This document shows, in pieces, positions 354 to 54,997 of a stretch of 64,000 bases of DNA. The notes beneath the pieces are model-generated. The model saw only the letters and a list, made by a program, of their open reading frames with translations. It was not told the origin of the DNA and made no database searches. Every line of letters begins with the position of its first letter. Position 1 is the first letter of the stretch. The DNA comes from Allacma fusca (lineage: Eukaryota; Arthropoda; Collembola; Symphypleona; Sminthuridae): NCBI GenBank assembly GCA_947179485.1, contig OX359245.1, positions 4,941,001 to 5,005,000 of the forward strand, in the 5' to 3' direction. Both the position numbers and the translations under genes were made by a program.

Positions 354-1615
354 TTAGACATTGTGTACATTCTGGCTTATTTTGTACTCAACTCTGAAGT
401 CAAGTCTGTCATCCTGTTTGATTTGACTCATTGTAATTTCCCGGAGTTGATTTTCATCTAGCCGGTAGTGCAAAGGATAATTTTCGATTAGTTGGATTTT
501 CGTAGTCCTAACTGGAAACACGGGGGACATTAGGATCTGAGATTCGTTTTCCTACAATAGTTGTAGATATTGTTCATAATCAAAATAGTAATATTAACTT
601 ATACTCTGACCTTAAGTAATGAAAATTTTAGCATCTAGGATTAATAATTGATTTCATGTAATTAATTGTATTTTGTACACATGGATTCTTCCACTTAATA
701 TTGACAATGAAATCATCTACAACAAAACGCTACTTGTTTATTGCACTGATTGTATGTATTAATTACCTCGCCTTGAACTCCTTGAACTTTAATTTGAACT
801 TGGTACTGCCTCGCAACATTTGCCCCTGCGAAGATCATCAGGAATAAGTACAAGTTTCCCTGTAGCATGAATGATCGCGTGTAGAACTCCTGATTTTCCA
901 TTTTAATTAACATCCCTTTCCAAGTGTATTCTACGAAAAGAAGAAAATATAAATTATTTTTTATTACATTTATAATTTTAATCTACAATCGGATAAGCGT
1001 TTAAAATTCAAGTAGTCCATGATTTTCCATAAAGGTACCTCTGTCTTTGCCCACGTTCCGGAAAGAATGCCCAACATAGAACGCTTCACGCTGGATCCGG
1101 CAGTCCTCAATAAAATGTCGCTCTCTCATGTGTTCAGGATAGCTGTCAAAGCTTAAGGTTGAGAAGCATCCTCTTAACTGACAGCGGATTTCCCTATAAT
1201 TTGAATTAAAAGTAATTAATTAGTATTAAGCCATGAATTATAAATTGGGGTTGTAAACCTAAATTAGGAAGGTTTGTGAAAATATTTAAAATAAGTCAAC
1301 ATACCGAAATTCACACTGCAACACGTGTGACTGAAAAATTTGCCCCGGAACCAGTGTTTGACAACCCTGACTTCGGTACTCACACGGAAAATTGACTCTA
1401 GCAATAAGTTGCTCATGCAACCGATCCCTCAGCATTCGAAAAGGCTCCAGGCAAACCCAGCAAGTTTCCAATTGAATGCCACGCTGGTGCAAGCAAATCC
1501 CACAGATTGTCAAGTGACCTTTGGCACAGTTATAAATTGGTGGACTTGGAGTCTGGAAGCAAACACTACAAATGAACTTGTTTAGTATCCGCAGCATTTC
1601 GGCAGTTGCTTCCAT
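354..1615 (-). CDS. SIAH/seven-in-absentia-type RING E3 ubiquitin ligase, four coding exons
   Basis: Coding exons on the minus strand are 1615-1305, 1193-1039, 930-767 and 551-354 (stop TAA). Every junction has GT/AG ends and phases fit (2, 1, 0), giving 275 residues, the usual SIAH length. The first exon carries a C3HC4-like RING: C16-x2-C19, C30, H34, C38-x2-C41, C52-x2-C55. It is followed by the paired SIAH zinc fingers (C78, C85, H97, C101; C108, C113, H125, H130). Exons 3-4 encode a beta-rich substrate-binding-like domain, recognisable from the spacing of LYLFLMIFAG and YQVQIKVQG. The family transfers ubiquitin to substrates in the cytosol or nucleus, and SIAH-like genes are often expanded in arthropods, so it need not be the seven in absentia orthologue. 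The start M at 1615 is chosen because the RING follows at once. The frame stays open upstream to 1729, so a longer N-terminus or a 5' exon is possible. Confidence 0.82.
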
Positions 1616-2047
1616 CACCAGTACTCCAAAATGCAGACTACGAACAAATTTTAAGACGATAATACTAAAATATGAAAATGTATTTTCAGAAGTGAAAGGC
1701 TTATGACGCGTCATGCATGTAGACAACAATAATAAACTTCTGGGAAGGCTTTCCTATTTTTATTACATTTTTAAAATTCATCATTTCAAAGAGGTAAATG
1801 TAAATAGTAAAATAAAACTGCATTGTACATTTGATTGATATTTACTTGCTTACAAACTGAAAACTCCACAGAATTTTTTGTGTATATAGGTCAGAAATAT
1901 GTGATTGCTATTGAACGATAGAGAACCGGCTTGAAAACAGTAACAGTACTGCGGAGCTCATTCAAATGCGTGCAGGTTCATGTGAATCATTACTAGTTAC
2001 TAAATTCCAAAAATGTTAATTATACTGTATTCCAATACACAATGACT
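1616..2047. other. Intergenic spacer between two minus-strand genes
   Basis: This 430-base spacer separates the stop of the GTPBP1-type gene from the SIAH-like gene, both on the minus strand. It must contain the 3' UTR of the former and the promoter or 5' UTR of the latter. I see no clear TATA box or further coding exon, although the minus strand stays open in the SIAH frame to 1729. Confidence 0.5.
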
Positions 2048-6456: not shown

Positions 6457-6836
6457 CCCTATAATTCCCAAGGTGTGGACAGCGTGGCCAAAACACAAAG
6501 TTTTCACAGTAATATTTTTATTTTAACGAAACTATGAAACGTAGAATTTTCATAATTTTGCTAATCGTTCCCTACTATTTTGGCAATACATGTTCCAAAT
6601 TTCAAGGTTCTAGGTCAAGCCACTACCAGTGCAGAAAATTTTGACTGTACCAAGTTTGCCTTTTCTCCACCATTTTCAATGCAAAATCATAGGCCTATAC
6701 CAATACATTGGGGCCATACGCATAGTATGTGTGAAATATTATTTTAATTTTATCGTTCTCCTTTGGATATAAAATAAATATAAATATATAATATATAAAA
6801 AATAATATATATATATATAATAATATATATTTAGGT

Positions 6837-6877
<41 letters not shown>

Positions 6878-6891
6878 ATATATATTTAGGT

Positions 6892-6928
<37 letters not shown>

Positions 6929-8317
6929 ATATATATTTAGGTTACATATATATATATATATATATATAAAATAATATATATTTAGTTTATATATATATAT
7001 AAAATAATATATTTAGTTTATATATATATATAAAATAATATATTTAGTTTATATATATATATATAAAATAATATATATTTAGTTTGTATATATATAAAAT
7101 AATATATATTTAGTTTATATATATATAAAATAATATATATTTAGTTTATATATATATATAAAATAATATATATTTTGTTTATATATATATATAAAATAAT
7201 ATATATTTAGTTTATATATATATAAAATAATATATATTTAGTTTATATATATATAAAATAATATATATTTAGTTTATATGTATATAAAATAATATATATT
7301 TAGTTTATATATATATAAAATAATATATATTTAGTTTATATGTATATAAAATAATATATATTTAGTTTATATATATATAAAATAATATATATTTAGTTTA
7401 TATGTATATAAAATAATATATATTTAGTTTATATATATATAAAATAATATATATTTAGTTTATACATATATAAAATAATATATATTTAGTTTATATATAT
7501 ATATAAAACTAAAAATATATAAATATATATTATTTTATATATATTATATATTTATATTTAGTTTGTAAGTATTATATATACATAACATTAAAAATATATA
7601 AATATATATTATTTTATATATATTATATATTTATATTTAGTTTGTAAGTATTATATATACATAAAATTAAAACTATATAAATATATATAATTTTATATAT
7701 ATTATATATTTATATTTAGTTTGTAAGTATTATATATACATAAAATTAAAACTATATAAATATATATAATTTTATATATATTATATATTTATATTTAGTT
7801 TGGAAGTATTATATATACATAAAATTAAAACTATATAAATATATATTATTTTATATATATTATATATTTATATTTAGTTTGTACGTGTTATATATATATA
7901 AAACTAAAAATATATAAATATTTATTATTTTATATATATTATATATTTATATTTAGTTTGTATGTGTTATATATATATATAAGTATATATATAATTAAAA
8001 TTATATGTATCTATATATATTTATATCATCCAAAGGAGAACGCTAAAATTAAAATATGTGTAAACTAAATATAAACATATAATATATATAATATATTTAT
8101 AATATAATAATATTGAAATATATTTATTTTATATGTATTATATACATAAATAATGAATTTTAATGACGATTATCCTTCCGTTGCAGCCCCAAAGCTGTTA
8201 AAATTGTGCCCCCTAAATAGGCTAATTAATTTGTTACGGGCCCTTTGATTTAACATGTGGCCAGCCTGTCCACGGCTTAGGAATAGTAGCACCCTAAAAA
8301 GCTTAGGAATCATAGGG
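6457..8317. mobile_element. piggyBac-like non-autonomous DNA transposon (TTAA target, CCC termini)
   Basis: The element is flanked on both sides by TTAA (6453-6456 and 8318-8321). Its ends are inverted copies: left CCCTATAATTCCCAAG, right (reverse strand) CCCTATGATTCCTAAG, 14 of 16 identical. A subterminal inverted pair follows (GTGGACAGCGTGGCC at about 6477 and, reversed, GTGGACAGGCTGGCC near 8255). TTAA duplication plus a CCC terminus is the hallmark of the piggyBac superfamily. No transposase frame exists; the interior is a large TA-rich tandem array. A third inverted pair (6741-6770 against about 8023-8056, sharing the reverse complement of CCAAAGGAGAACG) brackets that array, so the whole element can fold back. 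On the right end a block starting CCTAAG is duplicated within the terminal 45 bases. Confidence 0.82.
6775..8020. repeat. TA-rich satellite array inside the piggyBac-like element
   Basis: There are two tandem sub-arrays. The left one, to about 7500, repeats a unit of roughly 30-35 bases built from (TA)n, then AAAATAATATATATTTAG, then TTTA, in more than fifteen copies. The right one, about 7500-7985, repeats a unit of about 80 bases containing ATATATTATTTTATATATA and TTTAGTTTG, in about six copies. The sequence is almost pure A/T, with the small G/C content confined to TTTAGTTTG and rare CATA words. Confidence 0.9.
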
Positions 8318-16532: not shown

Positions 16533-18211
16533 TAGTGCTGTAATTTGTCCTTTTAGTATTGTATTGTACTTTGGCGAAAAGTACAAAAGTAGTACAACTA
16601 AGGTATTGTTTTGTACTCCGAGTTTTGTTTTTGTTTTGTACTTCTATCAGATTGTTTTTGTTTTTGTACAATCTGTATTGTATTGTTCTAAGGTTCTAGA
16701 AGACGCTAGAAATTTGCTAAAGTGATAGTTGTATCTGAGTTCAAGAGCACGTAGGAATTGATGTGTGCAACTTTAGTTGTTTAAAAATTACGTAAAAGAT
16801 CAAAAAACCAGTCATTGACTAATCTCCCATATGAGATGCATTGAATCTGTTGACGGTCGAATTTTGAAGGGTGCAATTCTGTGGCACCAACCTATTTGTG
16901 AATAATCCCTTTAATAACCACATTGTAATTTCCAGAAGACCTTATTTTCATAAACAATATTCACTACCATTGCTTAAAATTAGAACGGATAGAGTAGACG
17001 CGTGGGCTCTGTGTATCTATATTTTCAATTGGCTCAGCCGTTGGCTTTTACCACCTATTTCATCGATGTAGAAATGTCCCCTATGCGTGGACTACATTTA
17101 CAAATCGCGTAGTTCGTTTGTTAGACTAGGTCATGTGACTATTAATGACACAGGAAGGTCAATCTGAGGTCATGTGACTATTAATGACACAGGAAGGTCA
17201 ATCTGAGGTCATGTGACTACTAGTGTCAAAGGAAGGTCAATCTGAGGTCATGTGACTATTAGTGTCACAGGAAGGTCAATCTGAGGTCATGTGACTGTTA
17301 GTGTCACAGGAAGGCCAATCTGAGGTCATGTGACTGTTAGTGTCACAGGAAGGCCAATCTGAGGTCATGTGACTGTTAGTGTCACAGGAAGGTCAATCTG
17401 AGGTCATGTGACTACTAGTGACACAGTAAGGTCAATCTGAGGTCATGTGACTACTAGTGTCACAGGAAGGTCAATCTGAGGTCATGTGACTGTTAGTGTC
17501 ACAGGAAGGTCAATCTGAGGTCATGTGACTGTTAGTGTCACAGGAAGGTCAATCTGAGGTCATGTGACTGTTAGTGTCACAGGAAGGTCAATCTGAGGTC
17601 ATGTGACTGTTAGTGTCACAGGAAGGTCAATCTGAGGTCATGTGACTACTAGTGTCACAGGAAGATCAATCTGAGGTCATGTGACTACTAGTGACACAGT
17701 AAGGTCATGTGACCTCAAATTGACCTTATTGGGTCACCAATAGTCTAATGACAGATTACGGTTTTAAGGGGCGCATGACCTATAATGAAACTTGGTGAGT
17801 AACTAGTAGTAAATCACCTATGATTGACTTTATTGGCGCATTAATGGTCACATGACACTAGAATGACATATTCAATGTAAGTGTATATTTTATATGGGCA
17901 ATAGTAGGCGAATCTACCAATAATTAGTCAATGCCCAGTTTTTGTGCTTTGACGTGTTTTTTCACGATTCCAATTACACAAATCAATTCCTATGTGCTCT
18001 AGAAATCTATTACAACAATCACTTTAGTAAATTTCTAGCGTCTCTAGAACCTTGAAACAATACAATTTGGATTGTATTGTTTTTTTCAATTCCTGTTTTG
18101 TTTTTGTTTTAGTTTTGTATCTCGAAAATGGATATTGTTTGTTTAGTTTTGTACCAAAGACAAAAACAATACAAAAGTACAATACTAAACGAGTACAATA
18201 TTACAGCACTA
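16533..18211. mobile_element. hAT-type non-autonomous transposon carrying a 39-bp minisatellite
   Basis: The perfect 8-bp duplication CATGTATA lies at 16525-16532 and 18212-18219. Termini are inverted TAGTGCTGTAAT (12 bp), fitting the hAT consensus. Both ends (about 16545-16690 and 18050-18200) are degenerate arrays of words such as TTGTATTGTAC and GTTTTGTTTTTG. Further inverted similarity continues inward (the GTTCTAGA and CGTCTCTAGAAC blocks near 16690 and 18050). The middle holds a 39-bp tandem array; no transposase frame is present. Confidence 0.9.
17128..17705. repeat. 39-bp minisatellite, about 15 copies
   Basis: Exact 39-bp periodicity with few substitutions. The unit begins GAGGTCATGTGACT and continues (G/A)TTAGTGTCACAGGAAGGTCAATCT. 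Each unit contains the short inverted pair GTGAC/GTCAC around TGTTAGT and can form a small hairpin. Variation between units (TATTAATGACAC, TACTAGTGTCAC, TGTTAGTGTCAC) forms blocks, which suggests block-wise amplification. The array is located centrally in the surrounding hAT element. Confidence 0.95.
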
Positions 18212-18301
18212 CATGTATACATACATTTCAGGCCAAAAGTCTTCGCACGATAGCTGGAATTACATACCTATATACGTATGTATATACATATATATAAATA
18301 T

Positions 18302-19090
18302 AGGAGCCTCAAGTGAACATGTCCAAAAATATGGGCTCAAAAATGTTAGCAGGATTTAGTTCTAAGGTAGATAAACATTAAAATTGGAAGCCCAGGCAAT
18401 AAGGATACAGGGTGACTTCGGGGATTATAATACCCGCCACCCAAGCCTCGGATGTTTTAGCAATTTCTCTTCAGTTTAAGGGTGGTTATACCCAGCTGAG
18501 ATATTTCAACAGAGTTTTCAGTATTTTACATCAATTCGGACCTCAAGAAAAAGCAAGTTCAATTATTGGTTAAAGAGTGTTTTCATAAATTTTTGAACCC
18601 CAGTCCACTTTTGGTTTATTCACCTTTCGGGTAGAAAACTGACCCCAATTAAATTCTAGCTGGACAATGTATGCATGTTTTTGATCCAAAAGCTTGAGAT
18701 ATATGCAGTTGTTACAAAAACATGATTGTATTTGACTCACAACAATATTCGTTCTACATAAATGTTACACCCTGCAACTTTAGTGCTCCGAAAATTCACT
18801 CAAACTGTACCTCACCTGGCTTCTACTACCCCAAAACTAAAAAAAAGAAATTACTGAAACATCACGAGTTCGGGTGGCGGGAATTATAATCCCCGAAGTC
18901 ACCCTCCGTATCCTTACTTTTCTTATTATCTGGGCTTCAAATTTTATGTACCTCATTAAAGATGGCTTTTATACTACAATTGCGGAAATTCTGTAAAAAA
19001 ATTAATTCTGACCTGAGTTGATCTATATAGAACTAAATCGTGCTAACATTTTTGAGTCGCTATTTTTGTACATATTCACTTGAAACCCCT
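18302..19090. mobile_element. Inverted-repeat (foldback) DNA element of unassigned family
   Basis: The two ends are long imperfect inverted repeats. The terminal 55 bases from 18303 (CAAGTGAACATGTCC, then CTCAAAAATGTTAGCA and GATTTAGTTCT) recur reversed at 19030-19090. A second block at 18387-18442 (GAAGCCCAGG... to CCGCCACCC) recurs reversed at 18872-18938. The about 430-base centre is unique. No target duplication could be fixed, so the superfamily is open. The element abuts the LTR retrotransposon region by 600 bases and codes for nothing recognisable. Confidence 0.7.
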
Positions 19091-19696
19091 GCCAAAATCA
19101 CAATAACTCCGGTGTAATCAAAATAGTCATGTTATTTAAAACTCATAATGTATGCTCAAATCAATGAAATAAATGTACTTCAATTATGAGATTTGCTGTT
19201 GAGAAAATGTGGTTTAAAATATTTCCCTGGCTGTCGTCCTAAAAGACGTTCGATCGTAAGTGTACATGAATTAAAAATATGAACGAACACTCCAACAGCT
19301 CGAGTATAAACTATCCGAAAAGAACACCATTTGTGAATATTTTCATTCCCAAAAAGAATTCCCATCAAATTTCAATAACATCCCTGTAATTATTTTTTTT
19401 TTGACTCCCAATTATTAAAGTACACACCCGGGGAAATGAGGACATCAACCCCAATCTCAGAATTTTAAATCCGAACCTGTCCTCAAGCCCTACAGTCAGA
19501 TTAAATCCCTCTTTTAAAAAAATTCTCGTTATACGACTCTCCACCTAATAATAGCATATTTTCTCAACAGGATTTTTAAACAGCCACATTCCGTTCAACC
19601 CCAACGTTATAATTTCCTCTTATCAAAGCTTGCAAAAATTAGGTTAAATTTTGTCCCTTCAAAGGTCCTCTTGTATTTACAAAGAGAGAAAGATTT
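19091..19696. other. Spacer preceding the LTR retrotransposon, no gene seen
   Basis: AT-rich sequence with no recognisable gene. It ends in the CTCTG copy (19697-19701) of the retrotransposon target duplication. Confidence 0.4.
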
Positions 19697-19701
19697 CTCT
19701 G

Positions 19702-20149
19702 TGTTGAAAGTTAAGTCATGGCAGAGTTATGTCTGACCATGCACTTTCAGTAATGTTCCGTTGAGTAATAATAAGTATTGATTACATCTCTGTGTGATTG
19801 TGAGATGCTCGGGCAGTAGCTCAGTGTCAGCACTCCGTGACAGGATGTGCACACACAGCAGATTCCATAGTTAAGATGTAAAGGGGATTTCACACCTTGT
19901 GTTGAAATCCGGGCATGATGTTATTGGGTAATAAACATTTAACCTTTACTTATGATTATGAAATAGTCAAGAATGTATGTATGCACTACATTAGGGTGAT
20001 TATGAAATTATGACCGTTGGTCAATAATATAATAATACCATGACATTTCTGTACCTTATAAATATGTGTTTAGTTGTTAATAAAGAACAGTCGAAGAACT
20101 GATATTGTGAAGGTATAAGCTTCGGTTTTCAGTCTCTTTTATTTCAATA
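19702..20149 (+). repeat. 5' LTR
   Basis: 448 bases, starting TGTTGAAAG and ending TTTCAATA. The ends are inverted as TGTTGAAA/TATTGAAA, so the last dinucleotide is TA and not the usual CA. Read side by side with the 3' LTR I find no difference. The boundary is fixed by the CTCTG duplication and by divergence of sequence after the shared end. Confidence 0.95.
20057..20091 (+). promoter_or_regulatory. LTR core promoter and poly(A) signal
   Basis: TATAAATA (20057-20064) is followed about 31 bases later by ACAGTCG (initiator-like CAGT at 20088-20091), a good TATA-to-start spacing. The poly(A) signal AATAAA lies at 20079-20084, just before the presumed start. It would therefore be absent from the 5' end of the transcript and present only at the 3' end, a usual way to avoid early polyadenylation. 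The same signals occur in the 3' LTR. Confidence 0.6.
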
Positions 20150-20683
20150 CGTTATCAACACGCTCAAACTTGCCTGTGAATAGATTAGAAATTTATCACA
20201 GTACAAGTTCTGAGTTAATCCAGTCACTGAAACAGAAAAGTTTTTTTTGGAAAATATTTTCAAGTTAGTGAAGGCACAGTCTCGAAAAGTACAGTAATTT
20301 CAGACTACGGGGGGAAAAAGTTTAGAAGTGCGAGGAGAAACAGTCTATCAAAGTTTTTTTTCTAAAGTGTGAGTATTCGTTTAAACTACAGTCAATTATT
20401 TTTTATGTATAACTGAGAAGGTTATCATTATTAATATTGACTCCGTGAATTCATCACAATCAGTGAGTGGAAAAAGACTACAAGCCTACTCTCTCACAAC
20501 ACCCCAACCTCGACCTTTTAGAAACCAACTTTTATTACGAAAAATTCCTGGAAAATTACTAGCTTCCGAGAAGGTTGCAGTTAAGGTTCAGAATTTGGAA
20601 AGTTGTGGTTGTCAAAGTGAACTCAACATTTTTTGTTAAGCGTTCTACAAATTCGAGAAGAATTTGAGAATTAATAACATTAT
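20150..20683 (+). other. Retrotransposon leader with presumed primer-binding site
   Basis: 534 bases between the 5' LTR and the long frame. The first bases (CGTTATCAACACGCTC) are where the tRNA primer should pair; Copia elements often use an internal part of initiator tRNA, but I cannot confirm a match by eye. Two strong donor-like sequences, GTGAGTAT at 20369 and GTGAGTGG at 20463, could serve splicing of a subgenomic RNA. A 64-codon upstream frame (20445-20639) has no family resemblance. Confidence 0.5.
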
Positions 20684-23600
20684 ATGTCCGGACAAGGATC
20701 TAATCCGAATAGTCCATCCCAAGTGAAAAAGCAAGCTCAAGCTCAAGCTCAGAATCAAGGAGCAGCAGCTAACGCTATTCCAGTCATGGCAAATCAAACT
20801 GTACATCGTACGTACAAATTGGATTCGTCAAAATACCAGAAGCTGGCGGGGGCACATAACTACCTCGACTGGCGCAGGGCTCTCCACGCAGTTTTTTGTG
20901 GAGCAGATATGCAAGATGTAGTATATGGAACTACTCCTTATCCTTCAACCGGATCAGATGAAGATAAGAAAGAATGGCAACGCACGGATATGGCAGCTTA
21001 TGGAATTATCCTTATGGCCTTGGATAATAAAGCAACTATCCTCACGCGGTCTTGCAGAACTTCCGCTGAAATGTGGAACAAGCTGAAATCAGCTTATGGA
21101 GCGTCAAATTCCTTATCATTGGAAGACCTCAAGGATCAATTCCGGGAATTAAAAGTCACCCCGGATTGTAATGCAATGGAAGTTTTGGAAAAACTCCAGG
21201 ATTTGCAAGGCTTAATTAACAGCCAACTGAAACCCGGGAAGGGTCCCTTAGACGAAGACGATGTCATCAGCCAATGCATCCATGCAATGAAGGGCGGATA
21301 CTATGAAAGTTTCGTCACCATGTGGAGGGGGCAACCTGAGGTTGAACGGACCATGGGAAATTTTCAATCCCAATTACGTCTGTTTATTACACATAAACAG
21401 TCTGATGCACCATCAGAACGTGCAATGTTCGCCGGGCACCCAAAGGCACAGGGAGGGAATCCCAAAGCCAATGGGAACAATGCCAACAATGGGAAGGCGA
21501 AGAAGAAACCAGGCACCTGCCACAACTGTGGGAAGAAAGGGCACTGGAAAGCAGAATGCCGCTCAGAGAAAAAAGAGCGTAAGGAGCAAGCCCCGAAAGA
21601 GCAAAAGCAGGAGGGCAATAAGGATGAGAAATCCCAAAAGCCCAAGCAACCTCAAGAAATTAGAGCCTGTATGTTAAGGCCTATTTACACTCCCGGGAAG
21701 ACAATTGCCCTCAGCTCAACACACTTCAAGCCCTCAACAGGAAGAATTAGGCGCTCCGCATTCCAATGGGTATGCGACACAGGGGCCTCAGTTCATTTGT
21801 GCGGCCAAAAGGACTGGTTCTCAACTTTTGAAGAATTTGCTGAACCTTGGAAGCTCATGGCGGTAAGCGACAGGCCTGTGGATTGCCCGGGAAGGGGAAC
21901 CATAGTGCTTGAAGCAAAAGTCCGTGGTCGCTGGGAACCTCTGGTTTTGGATGATGTCATCTATTACCCAGGAGGAATAAATCTGTTCTCCGTCGGAACC
22001 TACAACAGGTTGGGATACAGATACATGATGGATGGTACACAGTCTGTGTTTATCAACAAGGCTACGGGAGAGGAAACTATCAATGCAACTGAAGTGCATG
22101 ATAAGATTCACATTATGAACTTCCGACTACCAACAAGTTTTCCCAGGGCACTCGCAGTCATCGGTATTTCAAGGCCAATAAGTCAACGCTGGCATGAAAG
22201 GATGGGCCACATGAACTTTGAGTTCCTCCACAAAACCTTCAAAGATGGCGCGGCACACCTCCGAGAGGACGACCGCATAGAGAAGAAGTATAAGTGTGAG
22301 ATATGTGCCATCACAAAGATGAACAATGAGTCATTCAAAACTCAAACCCATGACAAGCAGTATGAGACAGGAGAACTGTTACATGCTGACCTTGTACATG
22401 CAGCAGCTACTTCCAACCAGAGATGCAAGTATTATTTACTTGTGAAAGATCATGCCTCAAACTACAGGCTGGGATACTTTCAAATGGATAAAACAGCTGA
22501 TTGTACAGTCATCAACCTCATTGATGCAGTGAACTTTATTTCCACTCAGACAAAAAATCCCGTGAGGCGATTTAAGTCTGATAATGGGACGGAATTTAAA
22601 AACTCCAAATGGGCCACATTCTGCTCACAGAGAGGAATTGCTCATGAGTTTACCCCTGCTTACAATCCTCAGTCAAATGGAAAGATTGAACGGGAGGTCC
22701 AGACCATCACCAAAATGGCTCGGGCGATGTTAGTGGAAGCAGGTCTTGGAGAGAATCACTGGCAAGATGCAGTAGCTATGGCTGTGTACTTACTCAACCG
22801 AGTTTTAAGTACAACCAACACAAAAATGTCACCTATAGAGATGGTGACTGGAAAGAAACCGAATCTTTCCCATCTAAGGATTTTTGGATGCCCTGCCATT
22901 AGCGGCAAGCAAAAGGATCCGGCAAAATGGGGCAAACAAGGACGCAAGGGTCTTTATGTAGCAAATGTCCCAGATACAAAGCAGTATAAAATGTGGGATA
23001 CTGTAAAAAAGGAATATTTTTACACCCGACATGCACTCTTTTATGAGGAAGTAATGACAACTGATGCAGGAGTGGGAAAAAATCCTGGAAAGATTTTTCT
23101 CAACCAACTCCCGGAAAGCTCAGTTCAGGAGGTTGAAACCATCTCATCAGATGAAGAACCTGAGGACATCACAATTGTGAAGCAAGTTCAATTTGTGCCA
23201 AATCCTCTTCATACTCCTCAAATGCCGGCCCAAATTCCAGCTCCTCCGAGCCCCCAGCCCGTGTTCACTCCGAGACTGACATCCACTCCCGTAAAAAGGA
23301 CGACGATTCATCCGGCAGGAATTTCTAAAAAATATAAGGAGACATTAAAGGCGAGAAGCCCTTCGCTCCTTGATACTTTAGCTCCGGAGGAACCACCCAG
23401 ACCAGAATCACCCATTCCAGGGTGTAGTACTCGGCCATCAGCCCCGGCCCAAGTACAAAATGATGATCCAGCAGTTGAATCAGATAGTGATGCACTAGTT
23501 ATTGACGCTGGAAGTGGCAGTCTTGACTCGGAAACAGATTCTGATGAAGAATTTCAGTCAGCAAATCTAGACTCCACACAAAGTATTCCTCAAGTTTCAT

Positions 23601-26600
23601 GGAATGACCAGTTGGAACAATCAATTGAGGAAGAATTAGCTGATGCCTCCAGGGATACAGTAGTAATTCCACAAGTACAATCTCCTCCTCCAACTCCAGG
23701 ACGGAGCAGCGGGGATACTCAGCCTCAATCAGCTCTCAGACGAACGACCAGGACTACAGCAGGAGTACCCGGACCCAAATTTCAGGCCGGATTTTATGTC
23801 GGAGTGGATTGTTTTCATGCAGTTGGAAATTGCCCTCCGGAAAAAATTCCTGACAATTACAAAGTCCCAAAATCATTCAAAGACGTACGCCGTAATCGGT
23901 TTAAATTTGAGTGGGAGGAAGCTATGGACCAAGAACATTGCAGCCTCATTGAAAACAGGACTTGGAAATTAGTCAAACGTCCCCACAATGCAAAACTACT
24001 CAGAAATCGGTGGATTTTTGTAGAGAAAAAGTTACCTGACGGGGGGATTCGCAGAAAAGCTCGCTTAGTCGTCAAAGGATATGGTCAGCGACCTGAGATA
24101 GATTTTCATGAAACTTTCGCACCTGTTGTGAGATACGAAACAGTGCGAGCAGTATTTTTTGCCATAGCTCAGCAGAACTTACAAGTCATTCAATTTGACG
24201 TGAGTACAGCTTTCCTGAACGCTCCTCTAGACGAGGAGGTTTATATGGAACAGCCGGAAGGCTATGAAGTTTCAGGAGGGTATGTCTGTAAACTTGAGAA
24301 GGGTTTATATGGACTAAAACAAAGCCCTCGGAACTGGCACAAACTCATAAAGGCTAAACTCATCTCCCTCGGATTTGTAAAGTCAGCCTATGACTCCTGC
24401 CTCTTCACCTACAACAGTGGAAATACACGAATGATACTCGCACTGTATGTAGATGACGGTCTCCTTGCAGGAAACAGTAAATCCTCAATGGACCTCATAC
24501 TGAAAGAATTAAGAGCCACCTATAAGATGACGTCAACAGAAGACGTGAGGAAATTCTTGGGAATGGAAGTCATCATCACGGACACACAAGTTATGCTACA
24601 TCAAGAAACGTACATAATGGAAGTTGCAAAACGGTTTAGTATGGAGAAGTGTGAAACTTCCAGCATACCAATGGCCGCTAATCCGGATTTAGATGTAGAC
24701 ATGTTCTCAAAAGATCATGACCCATCACTACCATACCAGGAGTTAGTAGGAGCTCTACTATTCATATCAAGATGTACCAGACCGGACATTTCCTTTGCCG
24801 TGGGAAAACTGTCCCGCTACTTTCAATGTTACGAGAGAAAACACTGGGAGGCAGCCAAAAGGGTATTGCGGTACCTAGTAACTACCAAGAAGCTAGGACT
24901 CTGTTACACTCGCCTGGCGGAAACGAGTCTTAAAGGTTACAGTGATTCCGATTATGCTGGGGATAAAAAGACTCGGAAGTCTACCTCAGGCATTATCTTC
25001 ACTCTTAATGACTCACCTCTGCACTGGAAAAGTCAGAGGCAAACTCTCATCGCTCACTCCTCCACGGAAGCTGAGTACGTTGCATTGAGCGAAGCTAGCA
25101 AAATGGGGGAATGGCTCAGGAACCTGTTAGCTGACATTGACATATACAATGTCACCCTGCCATTCACAATTTTTACTGATAATCAGAGCAGTATGAAATT
25201 AGCGGCAAATCCGGAATTTCATGACCGGACAAAGCACATTGATGTGCGCCACCACTACATCCGATGGTTAGTGGAAACGGGACAAGTAGAGATCAAATAC
25301 TTACAAACTGGAAGGTTAGTGGCCGATATACTAACGAAGCCACTGGGTCGACAACAATTCGAGCCCAAAATGGAATTACTCTCCCTCACTCGGAAACTGA
25401 CGGTAGACGTAAAGGAACCTGACCAGCCTCAAACCAGCTCACAAGCAGTAAAGAGGGTATGTGCACTGTCATCACTGTGGAACGTGATACTGTTCATGCT
25501 TTTCTTTCCTCTGGTATTTTGCCAAAAATTCCAGGAGGGTAATGCTGTGATTTGGAGACGGAGCCTCACCCCAGCCATTGAAGGCTATAACTCTGTAGCT
25601 ATGAGAATTAGCTTAATTTCGCCATGCAAATTTCTCCCGACGGAAGGCCTGACCACAATGGCCGCGGAGAGAATAATGAAGCAATGCGAGAATCAATATG
25701 AGAAATTATTCTTGGAAGAATTGCGGATGGCATGTCCACCAAAGGACACTCGGCTTCAGAGGGACAAACGGGAACTCCTTACCCTAATATTTTTAATAAT
25801 AGTGGTATGTACGGCAAGCGCCGGGATTGGCATTGGACTTTATGCATTACACAAGATCGATAAATTGGAAATCACTCAGTTGGAAATTGAGAGAACTATG
25901 GATGACCTGGAGGAAAAAGTAAAGATCAACAGCGTCAACTTGGCCAAATTAAAGTTCGAGGTGGATAAAATGGCTCAGACGATTAACAATTTAATCAATG
26001 ACGTTCATTTATTCCAAGAAAAAGTGATTGAGATTAATTATCTTGTATCCTACATAACTTCAAGATTGTTAGTAGGACGGGGGGTAGTACAAGAAACAAG
26101 ACGGCTCTGGAATAAAAAGAAGATGGACAATAACTTCTTTGACTTCATGAACGTCTCCCTCCCGTGCGGTCAGGAATGCCCCATCGAATACGCAGAATTC
26201 CGTAGATGTTCGTTGGATCGAGAAGATTCCGAACTGGAACTACTTTTTGCGGTACCTGTTATGAGTAACATGACAGTTTTAGAGGCCGACCCCTTCTTCC
26301 TAATGCTTAAGGATAAGGATCAGACATGTAAATTGGAATACATTGGCCCTGAAAATGCTCTTCTCTCACCTGAAGAGGACTGTCTCCGAGCTGTAGATAT
26401 GAGGAGGGAATCCTCAACTCAGCTGTTTGCCTTCCGCTCAACTGAGTGTATGGAACTGGAAACGGCCAAGGACGAGGGCAAATATTATAAGACCCTGCGT
26501 TGCCTTCCGAGCAAACCTGGAGATGAGAAAGAATTTGTTCAAGTTAAGACACATAACAACAAATTCTATATATACTGCCCTGGAAGGGAGTATGTCAGAG

Positions 26601-27118
26601 GAGGCGACAAGAATAAAGTGAAATGCCCAAGCAAGGTGTTCACTTTGCCCCTCACAGCTACTTTTTCAATAGACAATTTAACTTATCGAGGAGATATTTT
26701 AAACTTGATCTATAATGAGAAAGAGGACCCTTTGCTCCACGAGAAGATTGAGTGGCATCTCTCCCCGGTCGTTAAATGGGATGATTTGAACGAGACGTTC
26801 CCGATACTGGAGCCCTTGGACAAAAATCACTGGACCCGTCAAACTGGAGACGAGATGTATGGTGCTGGATCCTGGATGCTGATAAGCTTGGTACTATTTC
26901 TGGCTGGAATCATCGGCGCTTTTATAGGATACAAAAAGTGCAAGAAGGTGCTGAAGCCACGAAAAGTGAGGAGGGCCAAGAGAAGACATCCCAAGGTTGA
27001 ATCTACACCGGAAACTGAAATGATCGAGCTAGAGCAGATTGGGGACGAGGACATCAGTGAAGACGTCCCGTCAGCAGCAAAGAAATTTCATCATGTTGAA
27101 GAAATTTCCATAGGTTAA
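20684..27118 (+). CDS. Gag-Pol-Env-like polyprotein of a Copia retrotransposon (2144 aa, intact)
   Basis: One frame, no stop. Gag region about 50-240; CCHC knuckle C279, C282, H287, C292. Protease DTGA 365-368. Integrase HHCC (H504, H509, C538, C541) and DDE (D569, D633, E669, the last two separated by 35 residues). Reverse transcriptase with D1172 and YVDD 1255-1258. RNase H D1421, E1462, D1499, ending near 1555. Then comes an envelope-like region: signal-type hydrophobic stretch 1598-1613; furin-type RDKR 1693-1696; hydrophobic stretch 1698-1721 directly behind it (fusion-peptide-like); predicted helical coiled region about 1722-1790; a cysteine-rich ectodomain with sequons at N1823, N1862, N1998, N2036; membrane span 2063-2084; basic then acidic tail. 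The order resembles class-I-like envelopes captured by other insect LTR elements; actual homology is unproven. A Gag-Pol-Env fusion without stop is unusual, and cleavage or splicing would be needed to release the glycoprotein. Confidence 0.95.
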   Translation: MSGQGSNPNSPSQVKKQAQAQAQNQGAAANAIPVMANQTVHRTYKLDSSKYQKLAGAHNYLDWRRALHAVFCGADMQDVVYGTTPYPSTGSDEDKKEWQRTDMAAYGIILMALDNKATILTRSCRTSAEMWNKLKSAYGASNSLSLEDLKDQFRELKVTPDCNAMEVLEKLQDLQGLINSQLKPGKGPLDEDDVISQCIHAMKGGYYESFVTMWRGQPEVERTMGNFQSQLRLFITHKQSDAPSERAMFAGHPKAQGGNPKANGNNANNGKAKKKPGTCHNCGKKGHWKAECRSEKKERKEQAPKEQKQEGNKDEKSQKPKQPQEIRACMLRPIYTPGKTIALSSTHFKPSTGRIRRSAFQWVCDTGASVHLCGQKDWFSTFEEFAEPWKLMAVSDRPVDCPGRGTIVLEAKVRGRWEPLVLDDVIYYPGGINLFSVGTYNRLGYRYMMDGTQSVFINKATGEETINATEVHDKIHIMNFRLPTSFPRALAVIGISRPISQRWHERMGHMNFEFLHKTFKDGAAHLREDDRIEKKYKCEICAITKMNNESFKTQTHDKQYETGELLHADLVHAAATSNQRCKYYLLVKDHASNYRLGYFQMDKTADCTVINLIDAVNFISTQTKNPVRRFKSDNGTEFKNSKWATFCSQRGIAHEFTPAYNPQSNGKIEREVQTITKMARAMLVEAGLGENHWQDAVAMAVYLLNRVLSTTNTKMSPIEMVTGKKPNLSHLRIFGCPAISGKQKDPAKWGKQGRKGLYVANVPDTKQYKMWDTVKKEYFYTRHALFYEEVMTTDAGVGKNPGKIFLNQLPESSVQEVETISSDEEPEDITIVKQVQFVPNPLHTPQMPAQIPAPPSPQPVFTPRLTSTPVKRTTIHPAGISKKYKETLKARSPSLLDTLAPEEPPRPESPIPGCSTRPSAPAQVQNDDPAVESDSDALVIDAGSGSLDSETDSDEEFQSANLDSTQSIPQVSWNDQLEQSIEEELADASRDTVVIPQVQSPPPTPGRSSGDTQPQSALRRTTRTTAGVPGPKFQAGFYVGVDCFHAVGNCPPEKIPDNYKVPKSFKDVRRNRFKFEWEEAMDQEHCSLIENRTWKLVKRPHNAKLLRNRWIFVEKKLPDGGIRRKARLVVKGYGQRPEIDFHETFAPVVRYETVRAVFFAIAQQNLQVIQFDVSTAFLNAPLDEEVYMEQPEGYEVSGGYVCKLEKGLYGLKQSPRNWHKLIKAKLISLGFVKSAYDSCLFTYNSGNTRMILALYVDDGLLAGNSKSSMDLILKELRATYKMTSTEDVRKFLGMEVIITDTQVMLHQETYIMEVAKRFSMEKCETSSIPMAANPDLDVDMFSKDHDPSLPYQELVGALLFISRCTRPDISFAVGKLSRYFQCYERKHWEAAKRVLRYLVTTKKLGLCYTRLAETSLKGYSDSDYAGDKKTRKSTSGIIFTLNDSPLHWKSQRQTLIAHSSTEAEYVALSEASKMGEWLRNLLADIDIYNVTLPFTIFTDNQSSMKLAANPEFHDRTKHIDVRHHYIRWLVETGQVEIKYLQTGRLVADILTKPLGRQQFEPKMELLSLTRKLTVDVKEPDQPQTSSQAVKRVCALSSLWNVILFMLFFPLVFCQKFQEGNAVIWRRSLTPAIEGYNSVAMRISLISPCKFLPTEGLTTMAAERIMKQCENQYEKLFLEELRMACPPKDTRLQRDKRELLTLIFLIIVVCTASAGIGIGLYALHKIDKLEITQLEIERTMDDLEEKVKINSVNLAKLKFEVDKMAQTINNLINDVHLFQEKVIEINYLVSYITSRLLVGRGVVQETRRLWNKKKMDNNFFDFMNVSLPCGQECPIEYAEFRRCSLDREDSELELLFAVPVMSNMTVLEADPFFLMLKDKDQTCKLEYIGPENALLSPEEDCLRAVDMRRESSTQLFAFRSTECMELETAKDEGKYYKTLRCLPSKPGDEKEFVQVKTHNNKFYIYCPGREYVRGGDKNKVKCPSKVFTLPLTATFSIDNLTYRGDILNLIYNEKEDPLLHEKIEWHLSPVVKWDDLNETFPILEPLDKNHWTRQTGDEMYGAGSWMLISLVLFLAGIIGAFIGYKKCKKVLKPRKVRRAKRRHPKVESTPETEMIELEQIGDEDISEDVPSAAKKFHHVEEISIG

Positions 27119-27195
27119 GAATTAATTAATATTTTGGGTTCTTTAATAATTCTGTGTATGTTTTTAATCAAGTTTATTTTACAGCAACTTACATT

Positions 27196-27203
27196 AAGGA
27201 GGG
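27196..27203 (+). other. Polypurine tract
   Basis: AAGGAGGG directly abuts the 3' LTR, the normal position of the plus-strand DNA primer of LTR retrotransposons. Confidence 0.75.
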
Positions 27204-27651
27204 TGTTGAAAGTTAAGTCATGGCAGAGTTATGTCTGACCATGCACTTTCAGTAATGTTCCGTTGAGTAATAATAAGTATTGATTACATCTCTGTGTGAT
27301 TGTGAGATGCTCGGGCAGTAGCTCAGTGTCAGCACTCCGTGACAGGATGTGCACACACAGCAGATTCCATAGTTAAGATGTAAAGGGGATTTCACACCTT
27401 GTGTTGAAATCCGGGCATGATGTTATTGGGTAATAAACATTTAACCTTTACTTATGATTATGAAATAGTCAAGAATGTATGTATGCACTACATTAGGGTG
27501 ATTATGAAATTATGACCGTTGGTCAATAATATAATAATACCATGACATTTCTGTACCTTATAAATATGTGTTTAGTTGTTAATAAAGAACAGTCGAAGAA
27601 CTGATATTGTGAAGGTATAAGCTTCGGTTTTCAGTCTCTTTTATTTCAATA
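27204..27651 (+). repeat. 3' LTR
   Basis: 448 bases, apparently identical to the 5' LTR, followed by the host duplication CTCTG (27652-27656). It carries the same TATAAATA and AATAAA signals; polyadenylation of the element's RNA should occur shortly after the AATAAA. Confidence 0.95.
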
Positions 27652-30600
27652 CTCTGTACAAAAAATGTGCCCCGTAACTCTTTGACTCCCCGACCCCGAC
27701 AGGTCAAAATCCCCTCCGACACCACGAAGGAGTAATTAAAAGAATATTTTGAGTAATTAATTCCCATAAGTAGCAATTATAATAATAGCTGGGACATTCT
27801 CTATGCATTTGAGCTTTCATGTATTTAATTAACTAAACATTGAGGCTAAAATTCTCACTGTGCCCCTTATTGCTCCAAAGTGAACTGTGTCCTCTCAAAA
27901 TAATTCCTCTTTCTCTCCCATCATCTCGGAAGAGTGCCACACACGGAATGAACTATCGGATAGATTTTGAGAGGGGAATAATTATATCTACTGCAAAAAA
28001 AAATATAATCTCATGACACACGAAACCCTTTGTACAATTAATGTCGCTACTTTATTTCAACAACAATAAGGGAATACAATGGACTGGAGGGGATGACATG
28101 ATCTTCACTGACTCCGCAAGCAAATCAATTATTGGGATGCATCCAAAATTATCCCCATTAATTATTTACAGACAGCTCCCAAGAGCAGTGGTCCCAGCAC
28201 AGAAGGCATGCAATTCTACATTGCTACTGTAGAACTGACTCCTGAATTTTATCTCTCTGCATTTACATCCTTACTGTGGGCTCTTCTCATGAGAGCACTA
28301 CGCTATCTCACCCAGGATATTCAAAATCTTGTCAAAGGAGCACACAAAAATCCAAACGGCTCAATTAAATCCTCACGTTTCTACACTTTGTCTCATACTG
28401 CCCCAATACAGAGAGAACGCTCTAGAGAACCCCCAAGATCCATGTCCACTGTATACAAAGTCCAAAAAAAAAGGATTTTATTAACGTTATATGTTCAAAT
28501 GATTTTTTTAAAAGGAAACCATAGTCGTACCAGGCCGTGCCCGCCCCAATTAATCTCACCACAAGTTAGGATCTTGCGAAATTTAAATAATTCGTTAATG
28601 GCATGAGCTCCACCAGGTTAGCCCAGGTTTGGGGAACCAGCTGGGCTTGTCAATGGGTAATAATAATTATAGACATGGCGTATCGCCCTAATTATGTACC
28701 TCTTAATGCTATTACATACTCTCTGTATAGGAAAATACCACTGAGTGAGGTCCCTCTGCAAAAATTATGAGCACAGAATAAGCACGGGAGTAGATACAGT
28801 ACTCAAGGGACTATAATACATTTGAGTCTCGCAAATTCTATAGACTCTCAAAATACCAGCACAGATCAAGCACCGTACAATTTGTCATAATTGAGTTGAG
28901 TCTGTTAAAAGTCTGAAAATCCTATGGGATTTTAGGGCTGCTTTAAAAAGAGGCCTATGTTATTTTGTCTACAGCATATGCAACGGTCTATGGCTATAAA
29001 TAATCCAATAAATTGTATTGAACTAACTCTCACACTCAAGAGGTAAAACTGCTAGAACTTCTTCATATGCTTATGAATGAAAAATTATAAAATCTTAAAA
29101 CAATCATAAGCAATATTGTGATAAATAAAATAAACGGCGTCCAAGTCCTACAGAATATTTCCCCAACGGATTTGCCCAAAAGCATGTGTTTTACATCTCT
29201 GTAACATTTTTTTTATATTTGTAATCTCTTGGAAGATAAGATTTTGTTAGTATAGTCTCCATCCCATATGTTTCCAAACAGGAATGGAAGGGAAGAAAAA
29301 AATAAAGAAACTTATTGTTAGCGTTCCCACAAATGCACAAAGTCACAGTGGCCCGTCCGGACATAACCAGAAAAACTAGAACAATGTATGTTCAACCTTA
29401 TCTGATTGTCATCAATTTCATCAAGTGTGGAACAAAAATGTGAGGATTGAGCACAGACAGGGTAGAGTCAAAAAGGTATCAAATCATAGGGAGAAGTATA
29501 AACTCTGTTCAAATAAAATGTTTCTCCCCTATACAGAAATTTTTTATTTTTTTATTATCATGACATTTTATTATTACGGACACTCAGTTTGTGCATCTAT
29601 AGTTATACATATGTATGTATGTGTACATAGATATATATAAGTGAAGGATTCCATATATGTATATGGAAACAGTTTAAATGGAGATATCCGGCCTCCCATA
29701 ATTTTCTTGGGTTATGGTCTCAGTCCCTGCGTCTCTGGAAGGTTTAGTTTTGGCTGGTTTTGGGTGGAGGTGTATTGTAAGTAAGAACGTACTTCCACAA
29801 ATTTTTCCCCCCCTTTCCATCCTGCAATTTTAAACAACAGGCCAACAATAACCCATTTTCTGTCTAATTTTTGATATGAAACTTTTCTCTAGTACTATGT
29901 TTCCACATTTTTTTTTCTACCCTTGTGTAGAGCATAGGGGTATTTTTATAGGAGGATTTGATGTATGTATAGATATGCATATACGGGTGTAAGTGGAGGT
30001 ACTTACTTATACTGAAAAGGAACAGGTCCGACGCTTAGCGAATACAAAGAATAATAATAATATTGTATTTTCGAGGGAAATATTTTTCCAGAGGAAAAAG
30101 TCCCAATCACGCGATGCTCCATATAGGATGGAAAAGTTGGGTTGAGGACTGTCCATCTATGACTTACCCTAATATTCAGAGCTCCTTATTTAAGATACGT
30201 TAGGATTGAATTAGTGTGTATTTATATGTAGACTCTATTTTGGAAGAAAATAACCTCTTGAAATAAGACTCGGAAAGTTGTATGTAGCTTTAATGTAAAG
30301 ACATGTGTGTACATATTTTTTTATAGATATGGATGTAATGAGTACAGTGGATCCTTCCTATGTAGGAGGATCATTTTGAGAGACTTTTACTTTTACAGGG
30401 AAAAGACAAAATAAAAAGGTGTTGGTATGAGGGTCTACATAAACACAGTGTCGTTTAAATCCAATGGTTAATTAAATTACAGGGACCTGCTCTGAAATGA
30501 CTGAAGATGCTCATACAGTAGACAGAAACATCAAGTACAATTTTGGATTTCCAACTAACATCATCTTCAAGGATTGGGAAAAAATTGTGAGGTCCATTAT

Positions 30601-53434: not shown

Positions 53435-53759
53435 AGCGAAAAAAAGGAGAGCATGTAATGTAGATAAATGAGGGATTTTTCCCTTTTCCCCCTTTCCTTC
53501 CAGCAAATATGCATTCACAGTCCGGGAGTCGATTTGAAGTAAGGACTCAATATATGTAATATATTGGGCTCTCTGGATACAGAAATGTTATTTTGTATAG
53601 AAATGGGTCTTATGTACATATGTATATCCTCTGAGTGCAAAGGTAAAAGTGGATATTGGTTTTTATGGGGACTTAAACGTGTGTGCCGTGATGGGATGGA
53701 TGGGAGATTGTAATAATGCTATTAAGGTATTGTTTCATTATATGTGTCCCTCTATATAG

Positions 53760-53950
53760 GATGAAGCCACCGCCAAAGGATGGAGTAACAAAATCGAATC
53801 CATCGAAACGTCACCGTGAGAGATTAAATGCTGAGCTGGACACCCTCGCCTCCCTCCTACCCTTTGAACAAAATATTCTCTCGAAATTAGATCGACTTTC
53901 TATACTTCGCCTTGCTGTCTCTTACCTTAGAACTAAAAGCTACTTTCAAG
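53760..53950 (+). CDS. ss: spineless / aryl hydrocarbon receptor homologue, bHLH exon
   Basis: The exon begins after CTATATAG and ends CTTTCAAG|GTATAA (phase 1). It encodes [20 protein letters not shown] followed by the rest of the bHLH, with helix 1 ([13 protein letters not shown]), loop and helix 2 ([17 protein letters not shown]) and the terminal SYFQ. The basic region [13 protein letters not shown] is the Ahr/spineless DNA-reading motif for xenobiotic-response-type half sites (with ARNT/Tango). One residue in helix 2 (A in RLAVSYL, where S is common) is a mild change. The frame upstream of the acceptor also stays open from 53716, but that is intron. PAS-A, PAS-B and the C-terminal activation domain are not in the window, so the gene continues right. 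Confidence 0.95.
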
Positions 53951-54997
53951 GTATAATTATATCACACAAATCTTGTCAAATTATTTTCATTGGTTCTCAA
54001 TCCTTTTATTTGATATTGCTCCTCACGTTTAAAAGGGATACCGTCTTAAGGGCATACGAATCTATACCAGCTGTCAAGGTTCCATGTAACTATTATCGTA
54101 TTTTAATTCAATTTACATAGTAGATATAACAGTTCTGGTATATCGCACACTAAAAGTCCTCCCCCTTAAAGGTAGATGTCCTATCAAAATCCCCGTCTTT
54201 TGTACAGCGTGTTTGCTTAGGACAAGAAAGAACATTTGATCAAGATTCCTCCATATATGGGCTGTTTTAAACCGGCGATTCGGAAACTCTACAATAATTG
54301 TGGAAAATTCAATGATTATTGCTCTACTAGATTTTAATTTGTGGCCAGGTTGTAGAAGTCGGGAAGAGTAAAATAGTGGACGAGCGTTTTTAAAAGAAAA
54401 ATTGGGATATTTACAGAACCCCTTTTAATGAAACCAAAGGAACAAAAAGCAAAGAAATAAGACAGAATCACTGGAAATATATTTACCAGCTAAAGGCACT
54501 AAATTTGCGCACAATTTAGAAAAACAATTGAATGGAATTTGAGGTTTTTTTTTAATCTCACCATTGAATATACTTATGACATGTGAAATTTTGATGGAAC
54601 TGAAAGTTGATGTAAAATAATTTTGAGGGAAAAATTTTTTTGCAGGATCTTCCTGGAATTTAAATTCCAGGAATTGTGCCATTAGTCTGCTTCTTCTTGT
54701 CTATTCTGTGTAAATATAGAAATCCATGTATGTACTTATGTGGTAGCCCTTGGATTCCACATGCCCTGAACCATGTGCTTATTCCCAAAAAAAAAAAAAA
54801 TTGGAGGAAAAAGGTATATTCCGTTTCTTGTTAATTTGATTGCAAATTATGACTCTCTCGTGCCATGTCTGTGTATGGTTCACGCCATGAACCCTGTATG
54901 AACGACATAGTGTGCATATATTATTGGTCAAAGCCTAGATTCTACATGTACCTTCCATACACTCACTATTTACAACATGTACGTACATATCCCCATC

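What the first reader, a model, noticed from the sequence alone, without database searches (positions are those of the whole stretch)
25346..27118. Envelope-like glycoprotein fused in frame to a Copia Gag-Pol
Seen: after RNase H the single 2144-codon frame continues through a signal-like segment, RDKR, a long hydrophobic segment, a helical region, four sequons, many cysteines, a membrane span and a charged tail. Known: Copia elements usually end after RNase H, and envelopes in insects are mostly on Gypsy or BEL elements as a separate frame. Inference: a Copia lineage that captured an envelope and may be able to leave the cell, expressed as Gag-Pol-Env fusion or by splicing.
Basis: partly seen in the sequence, partly recalled or inferred. 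Interest (0 to 1): 0.92.

Follow-up and report, generated by a model that had tools for sequence, protein, structure and literature searches.

The report
Copia retrotransposon with viral entry protein
A Copia-type jumping gene, apparently inserted recently into what is likely an animal genome, carries in one unbroken reading frame after its copying enzymes a glycoprotein predicted to be a virus-style membrane-fusion (entry) protein, as do four relatives in public databases; it likely came from a virus and would give a normally cell-bound element a way to reach other cells.

Summary
A young LTR element (19702-27651; LTRs identical 448/448, CTCTG target duplication) has one 2144-codon frame: Copia Gag, PR, IN, RT, RNase H, then about 590 codons of glycoprotein with signal-like segment, RDKR, hydrophobic segment, coiled coil, Cys-rich domain, membrane span and charged tail. 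Eleven database relatives exist (28-53% identical), two from the springtail Allacma fusca. The 5 records that reach upstream run from Pol into the glycoprotein; three of them carry Gag too. (Protein records end at stops, so broken junctions would not show.) A basic cleavage motif is kept in 8 of 9, three F2 cysteines in 9 of 9, seven F1 cysteines in 12 of 12, a heptad repeat in 9 of 9. A moderate AlphaFold model (pLDDT 60) finds paramyxovirus/pneumovirus F in all 50 PDB rows shown. No Pfam family matches. Best reading: a Copia lineage captured an F-type class I fusion glycoprotein once, long ago, and keeps it fused to Pol. Fusion activity, expression route, donor, host and copy number are untested; the own-genome search did not complete. 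Captured envelopes are known on other retroelements; an animal Copia with one was not found in the papers searched.

The parts
19697..19701 (.). target-site duplication CTCTG, 5' copy
   Evidence: sequence
19702..20149 (+). 5' LTR (TGTTGAAAG...TTTCAATA)
   Evidence: 448/448 identical to the 3' LTR
20684..27118 (+). single Gag-Pol-Env open reading frame, 2144 codons
20888..21328 (+). Copia-type Gag (PF14223)
   Evidence: E 1e-13
21518..21559 (+). CCHC zinc knuckle CHNCGKKGHWKAEC
   Evidence: PF00098 and motif
21776..21784 (+). DTG, likely protease active site (inferred from motif), inside the PF22936 match
22142..22321 (+). gag_pre-integrase domain (PF13976)
   Evidence: E 1.1e-8
22505..22669 (+). 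integrase core, C-terminal half (PF00665; sub-threshold on this cut piece)
   Evidence: E 7e-7, 29.9 bits against cut-off 32.6
22847..23056 (+). SH3-like domain of retroelement polyprotein (PF25597)
   Evidence: E 1.5e-14
23954..24676 (+). Copia reverse transcriptase (PF07727), YVDD at 24446-24457
   Evidence: E 1.2e-62
25058..25339 (+). part of RNase H (SSTEAEY ... ADILTK; motif names recalled)
   Evidence: aligned with P0004, P0010-P0012
25346..25465 (+). RNase H tail and variable linker to Env, frame open; KRVCALSS at 25451-25474 resembles basic A-L-x-S stretches in some relatives
25466..25522 (+). internal signal-like hydrophobic segment
   Evidence: mean hydropathy 2.1; a hydrophobic segment is present in the 7 of 7 sequences that cover it
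25523..25759 (+). predicted F2 subunit, three conserved cysteines (25625, 25685, 25733)
   Evidence: Cys 9 of 9 each; model strand then helix
25760..25771 (+). RDKR, predicted furin-type cleavage site
   Evidence: [RK]x[KR]R in 8 of 9 sequences; strict RxKR in 7 of 9
25772..25855 (+). predicted fusion peptide, conserved SAGxG (P0005 has SARVG)
25856..26044 (+). heptad-repeat coiled coil (HR1-like)
   Evidence: 15-16 of 18 a/d positions hydrophobic in 9 of 9 sequences, 0 of 2000 shuffles each
26162..26707 (+). cysteine-rich beta domain of predicted F1
   Evidence: 7 Cys in 12 of 12, 2 more in 11 of 12; strands
26873..26929 (+). transmembrane span
   Evidence: mean hydropathy 2.4; present in the 10 of 12 sequences that reach it
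26930..27118 (+). charged cytoplasmic tail and stop
27196..27203 (+). purine-rich tract AAGGAGGG before the 3' LTR (PPT-like)
   Evidence: sequence
27204..27651 (+). 3' LTR
27652..27656 (.). target-site duplication CTCTG, 3' copy
   Evidence: sequence

Best explanation
This is a Copia-superfamily LTR retrotransposon with intact ends, apparently inserted recently, whose single Gag-Pol frame continues in frame into a glycoprotein that is predicted to be an F-type (paramyxovirus/baculovirus-like) class I membrane-fusion protein, likely captured once from a virus by an ancestor of this Copia lineage and likely used to carry its particles into other cells. Shown: one open frame, Copia domains, identical LTRs, the glycoprotein layout, its conservation in 11 relatives and the in-frame junction in the 5 records that reach it. 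Predicted: the F fold. Inferred: the genomic RNA is translated as one polyprotein; the internal signal segment sends the C-terminal part into the ER while Gag-Pol stays in the cytosol; signal peptidase and the element's protease free Env from RNase H; a furin-like host protease cuts at RDKR into F2 and F1 held by disulfides; the hydrophobic N-terminus of F1 enters the target membrane and the heptad region drives fusion.
Confidence: 0.72

Rival explanations
1. The glycoprotein is a captured F-type Env as above, but it is made from a spliced subgenomic RNA, as in errantiviruses, and the open junction only lets RNase H and the env exon share one frame. (This rival overlaps with the best explanation except for the expression step.)
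For: Errantivirus Env is typically translated from spliced RNA, with the upstream exon supplied from before or within gag (PMC12992720, passages). Drosophila copia makes a spliced Gag isoform (PMC11835246, passages). Two GTGAGT donor-like sites lie in the leader at 20369 and 20463. A Met in the RNase H tail is present in 7 of 7 sequences that cover it (same alignment column in 6, three columns earlier in the window), so a spliced or internal start there is possible. Four of 7 also have a Met between that tail and the signal core.
Against: A narrow acceptor pattern ([CT]N[CT]AG) over 24800-25600 found seven sites, none between 25120 and the signal segment; other AGs were not scored. Three of 7 sequences (window, P0011, P0012) have no Met between the RNase H tail and the signal core. 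The frame is open across the junction in the window and in the 5 records that reach it.
Confidence: 0.4
2. The glycoprotein is a true F-type relic that no longer mediates entry and serves an intracellular or particle-assembly role, or is simply dragged along.
For: Env loss and decay are common in LTR elements (general knowledge). P0010 lacks the cleavage motif. ICTV describes Copia particles as intracellular, although its table says virions might be enveloped (PMC8515867, whole text).
Against: Cleavage motif, hydrophobic F1 start, cysteines, heptads and membrane span are kept although relatives are only 27-66% identical to each other (one A. fusca pair 89%); a dead passenger would be expected to lose them.
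Confidence: 0.15
3. A host membrane protein gene was transduced by this element.
For: Such transduction is known in retroelements (general knowledge); most of the matching records are unnamed.
Against: The 5 upstream-reaching relatives are Copia-linked; none of 11 is named as a host protein; the predicted fold is viral F.
Confidence: 0.04
4. Chance read-through or assembly artefact.
For: None found.
Against: 590 open codons, chance about 5e-13; the same junction in 5 other records of other sequence.
Confidence: 0.01
5. Donor question (compatible with the best explanation): Env came from another F-carrying retroelement or a baculovirus, rather than from an arthropod negative-strand RNA virus.
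For: Errantivirus Envs are F-type and related to baculovirus F (PMC12992720, passage). Culex nigripalpus NPV F is BFVD rank 2, E 3.8e-9.
Against: Highest query TM-scores among the BFVD rows at E <= 1e-3 are Bemisia tabaci arlivirus 1 (0.40), Canya virus (0.39) and the unnamed A0A384ZVF2 (0.39), and paramyxo/pneumovirus F fills the PDB rows shown; the differences are too small to decide.
Confidence: 0.4

Closest known systems
Sireviruses (plant Copia, SIRE1)
   Same: Copia element with a putative envelope gene after gag-pol (PMC8515867, whole text).
   Different: Described as restricted to plants and as a third ORF; here one frame, closest named relatives from a springtail, and a predicted F fold.
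Insect errantiviruses (Gypsy/Metaviridae iERVs such as ZAM)
   Same: F-type Env with signal, furin site, fusion peptide, conserved cysteines and membrane span (PMC12992720, passages).
   Different: Gypsy Pol, Env as a third ORF typically translated from spliced RNA; here Copia Pol and an in-frame fusion.
TelKA elements of bdelloid rotifers
   Same: LTR element with a paramyxovirus-type class I F acquired as env (PMC5408684, abstract and passages).
   Different: A retrovirus-like LTR lineage with an ORF3 that matches paramyxovirus F over its length by HHpred (as that paper reports); here no significant sequence-level match.
Drosophila copia
   Same: Copia Gag-Pol that self-cleaves; its capsids were reported to transfer between cells (PMC11835246, start of abstract and passages).
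   Different: No envelope protein after RNase H (recalled).
Paramyxovirus/pneumovirus F proteins
   Same: Predicted fold and order of parts.
   Different: About 6-14% identity in the fold alignments shown; found here on a retroelement.

Membership tests
Copia superfamily / Pseudoviridae | Integrase before reverse transcriptase; Copia-type Gag and RT | tested here: met
   order Gag, CCHC, gag_pre-integrs, rve (29.9 bits, sub-threshold on cut piece), SH3, RVT_2
Copia superfamily / Pseudoviridae | LTRs and short target-site duplication | tested here: met
   448/448 and CTCTG
Copia superfamily / Pseudoviridae | Primer site complementary to initiator tRNA-Met or a tRNA part | not tested
   sequence after the 5' LTR is CGTTATCAACACGCTC; no tRNA of the host at hand, none in the window
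Copia superfamily / Pseudoviridae | No extracellular phase (ICTV) | not testable with these tools
   needs experiment
Sirevirus | Env-like third ORF after gag-pol | tested here: not met
   single frame; no other ORF of 150 aa or more in 18000-30000
Sirevirus | Plant host | tested here: inconclusive
   window host not named; the two named relatives are from the springtail Allacma fusca
F-type class I fusion glycoprotein | Furin-type site directly before a hydrophobic fusion peptide | tested here: met
   window RDKR; [RK]x[KR]R 8 of 9, strict RxKR 7 of 9
F-type class I fusion glycoprotein | Coiled coil after the fusion peptide | tested here: met
   9 of 9, 0 of 2000 shuffles each
F-type class I fusion glycoprotein | F fold | tested here: met
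   Foldseek and VIA-align on a predicted model of moderate confidence
F-type class I fusion glycoprotein | Sequence profile match to an F family | tested here: inconclusive
   no Pfam match above cut-off for the window's protein (25 of 30 families shown for the 12 members); PDB profile hits to metapneumovirus F at E 0.16-0.24
F-type class I fusion glycoprotein | Membrane-fusion activity | not testable with these tools
   needs experiment
Errantivirus (Gypsy) | Gypsy-type Pol, integrase after RT | tested here: not met
   Copia order and RVT_2

The most novel reading that the evidence does not exclude
A lineage of animal Copia elements (Pseudoviridae) is in effect an enveloped retrovirus group that arose on its own, whose F-type fusion glycoprotein has no gene of its own but is made as the C-terminal part of one Gag-Pol-Env polyprotein, entering the secretory pathway through an internal signal.
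Probability: 0.35. Interest if true: 0.9.

Novelty: new variant of a known kind. Interest (0 to 1): 0.78.

Why it matters
ICTV's profile describes Copia-type elements as lacking an extracellular phase and ascribes an envelope gene to plant sireviruses. An animal Copia lineage that has kept an F-type entry protein through deep divergence would be a further, separate origin of retrovirus-like elements from cell-bound ones, now in the Copia superfamily. The fused layout raises a direct question: how one polyprotein can supply cytosolic Gag-Pol and a secreted membrane glycoprotein. The young insertion (identical LTRs) suggests living copies in which it can be tested.

Tried and rejected
Structure from the first 7-sequence alignment: pLDDT 44, not used for fold searches. 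PDB by single sequence: two weak hits in the helical stretch, E 0.15 and 1.4. NCBIfam: only weak hits for the window's glycoprotein, E 0.007 and 0.023, far below cut-offs. Loci for DNA-level comparison: three scans of viral contigs, two with Env alignments and one with the RT-RNase H piece, and one of genome contigs gave no relatives, so no dN/dS or nucleotide-level splice-site comparison was possible. Rfam at gathering thresholds and tRNA scan of the window: nothing. Besides the two LTRs and the env itself, blastn of LTR and env found no other copy in the window. Own-genome search for copy number: 13 identical requests, none answered. Host-gene, chance and artefact readings rejected as above. 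Donor assignment attempted from fold scores and left open.

Print searches: ten used and answered; one search returned no paper, the other nine returned lists, several capped. I saw no animal Copia with an envelope in those listings, nor in passages of the papers opened. The library lacks most papers of subscription journals. The zebrafish ERV paper classed 6 elements as Copia and found env only in class I (PMC8672886, passages). The springtail genome paper gives only Copia totals in the passages seen (PMC12693562).
Full report
What is there. The window holds an LTR element with both ends at 19702-27651. Its two LTRs are identical at 448 of 448 positions and are flanked by CTCTG on both sides, so the insertion is probably recent. 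Between them lies one ORF of 2144 codons, 20684-27118. Pfam, run on cut pieces, finds Copia Gag, a CCHC knuckle, Pol_BBD, gag_pre-integrase, SH3-like and RVT_2 above cut-off, and the integrase core slightly below cut-off because my cut fell inside it. Integrase before RT is the Copia order. DTG, YVDD and RNase H motifs (names recalled) are present.

After RNase H. ADILTK ends at 25339. The frame then gives a linker, an internal signal-like segment, about 80 residues of predicted F2, RDKR, a hydrophobic segment with SAGIG, a long heptad region, a cysteine-rich part, a membrane span and a charged tail. The region has no Pfam match above cut-off. Across the 12 members of the alignment the only strong Pfam match is RVT_2 in the Pol part of P0004; the next best is E 0.0017, below its cut-off (25 of 30 families shown).

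Relatives. Protein searches gave 6, 8 and 4 proteins, 11 distinct; the first two searches scored only the 7994 candidates sharing most words. Identity to the window's Env is 28-53%. Five relatives reach upstream of Env (P0002, P0004, P0010, P0011, P0012) and all five read from RNase H into Env in one frame, P0002 showing only the last residues of RNase H; P0010-P0012 carry Copia Gag domains. The other six start inside or after the junction. Protein records end at stops and contig ends, so a copy with a broken junction would look like one of these six; the five are therefore evidence that the fusion recurs in diverged elements, not a rate. P0006 lacks a stretch of about 41 residues that the others have, which may be a gene-model effect.

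Conservation. Basic motif [RK]x[KR]R: 8 of 9 (strict RxKR 7 of 9; P0003 KHKR, P0010 KSKK). F2 cysteines: three, 9 of 9. F1 cysteines: seven in 12 of 12 and two more in 11 of 12, the miss being P0006's gap. The sequon before LPC or MPC: 10 of 11 that have letters there, P0002 lacking it. Heptad hydrophobics: 15-16 of 18 a/d positions over 63 residues in 9 of 9 sequences, and 0 of 2000 shuffles reach this in any of them. Signal-like segment: 7 of 7 that cover it. Membrane span: the 10 of 12 that reach it.

One old capture. Pairwise, RT-RNase H identity is 46-64% and Env identity 33-51% among the five elements with both parts (P0004 with part of RT), P0011/P0012 being the closest pair in each. 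Both small trees join P0011 and P0012 with support 1.00; the order within the other three is not settled and differs between the trees. This fits joint descent since one capture. Env-less Copia elements were not available as an outgroup, so separate captures are not excluded.

How it likely works. The linker changes in sequence and length but the frame is open across it in the window and the five records that reach it, which favours translation through it. Three of 7 sequences have no Met between the RNase H tail and the signal core, so Env there would need the polyprotein, a start in the RNase H tail, or splicing. I commit to the polyprotein with an internal signal as the main route, at modest confidence. 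Errantivirus Env is typically spliced (PMC12992720, passages), and Drosophila copia makes a spliced Gag form and self-cleaves (PMC11835246, passages), so splicing is a strong rival. The rest, furin cut and F-driven fusion, follows from general knowledge of class I F proteins and was not tested here.

Against the known. ICTV describes Copia particles as intracellular, with a table line that virions might be enveloped, and ascribes an Env to plant sireviruses as a third ORF (PMC8515867, whole text). Errantiviruses, Anakin elements and TelKA elements show that LTR elements capture envelopes (PMC12992720, PMC12440569, PMC5408684; passages). In ten answered literature searches I saw no animal Copia with an envelope; the library is partial and I opened only some of the papers listed. 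I therefore call it a new variant of a known kind.

Noticed in passing
window 25451-25474: The codons for KRVCALSS sit where some relatives have similar basic A-L-x-S stretches (KRKALMS in P0010, KRRALCS in P0011, KRSALSS in P0012); it may be a processing site between Pol and Env. In the window the DNA there also reads AGGGTATGT, a donor-like string.
   Followed up: partly
window 20369 and 20463: GTGAGT donor-like sites in the untranslated leader between the 5' LTR and the ORF.
   Followed up: partly
window 6767-8026: Long AT-rich tandem arrays with periods of 2, 31, 79 and 93 bases.
   Followed up: no
window 17128-17707: 39-base tandem repeat, about 15 copies at 95% match.
   Followed up: no
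window 1289-1753 (-) and 53692-54117 (+): Host-gene-like exons: Sina RING/zinc finger (just below Pfam cut-offs), and a bHLH domain above cut-off.
   Followed up: no
P0007 (protein record, 356 aa): Most distant Env relative (27-33% identical to the others), lacking the N-terminal part in its record; could mark a separate lineage.
   Followed up: no
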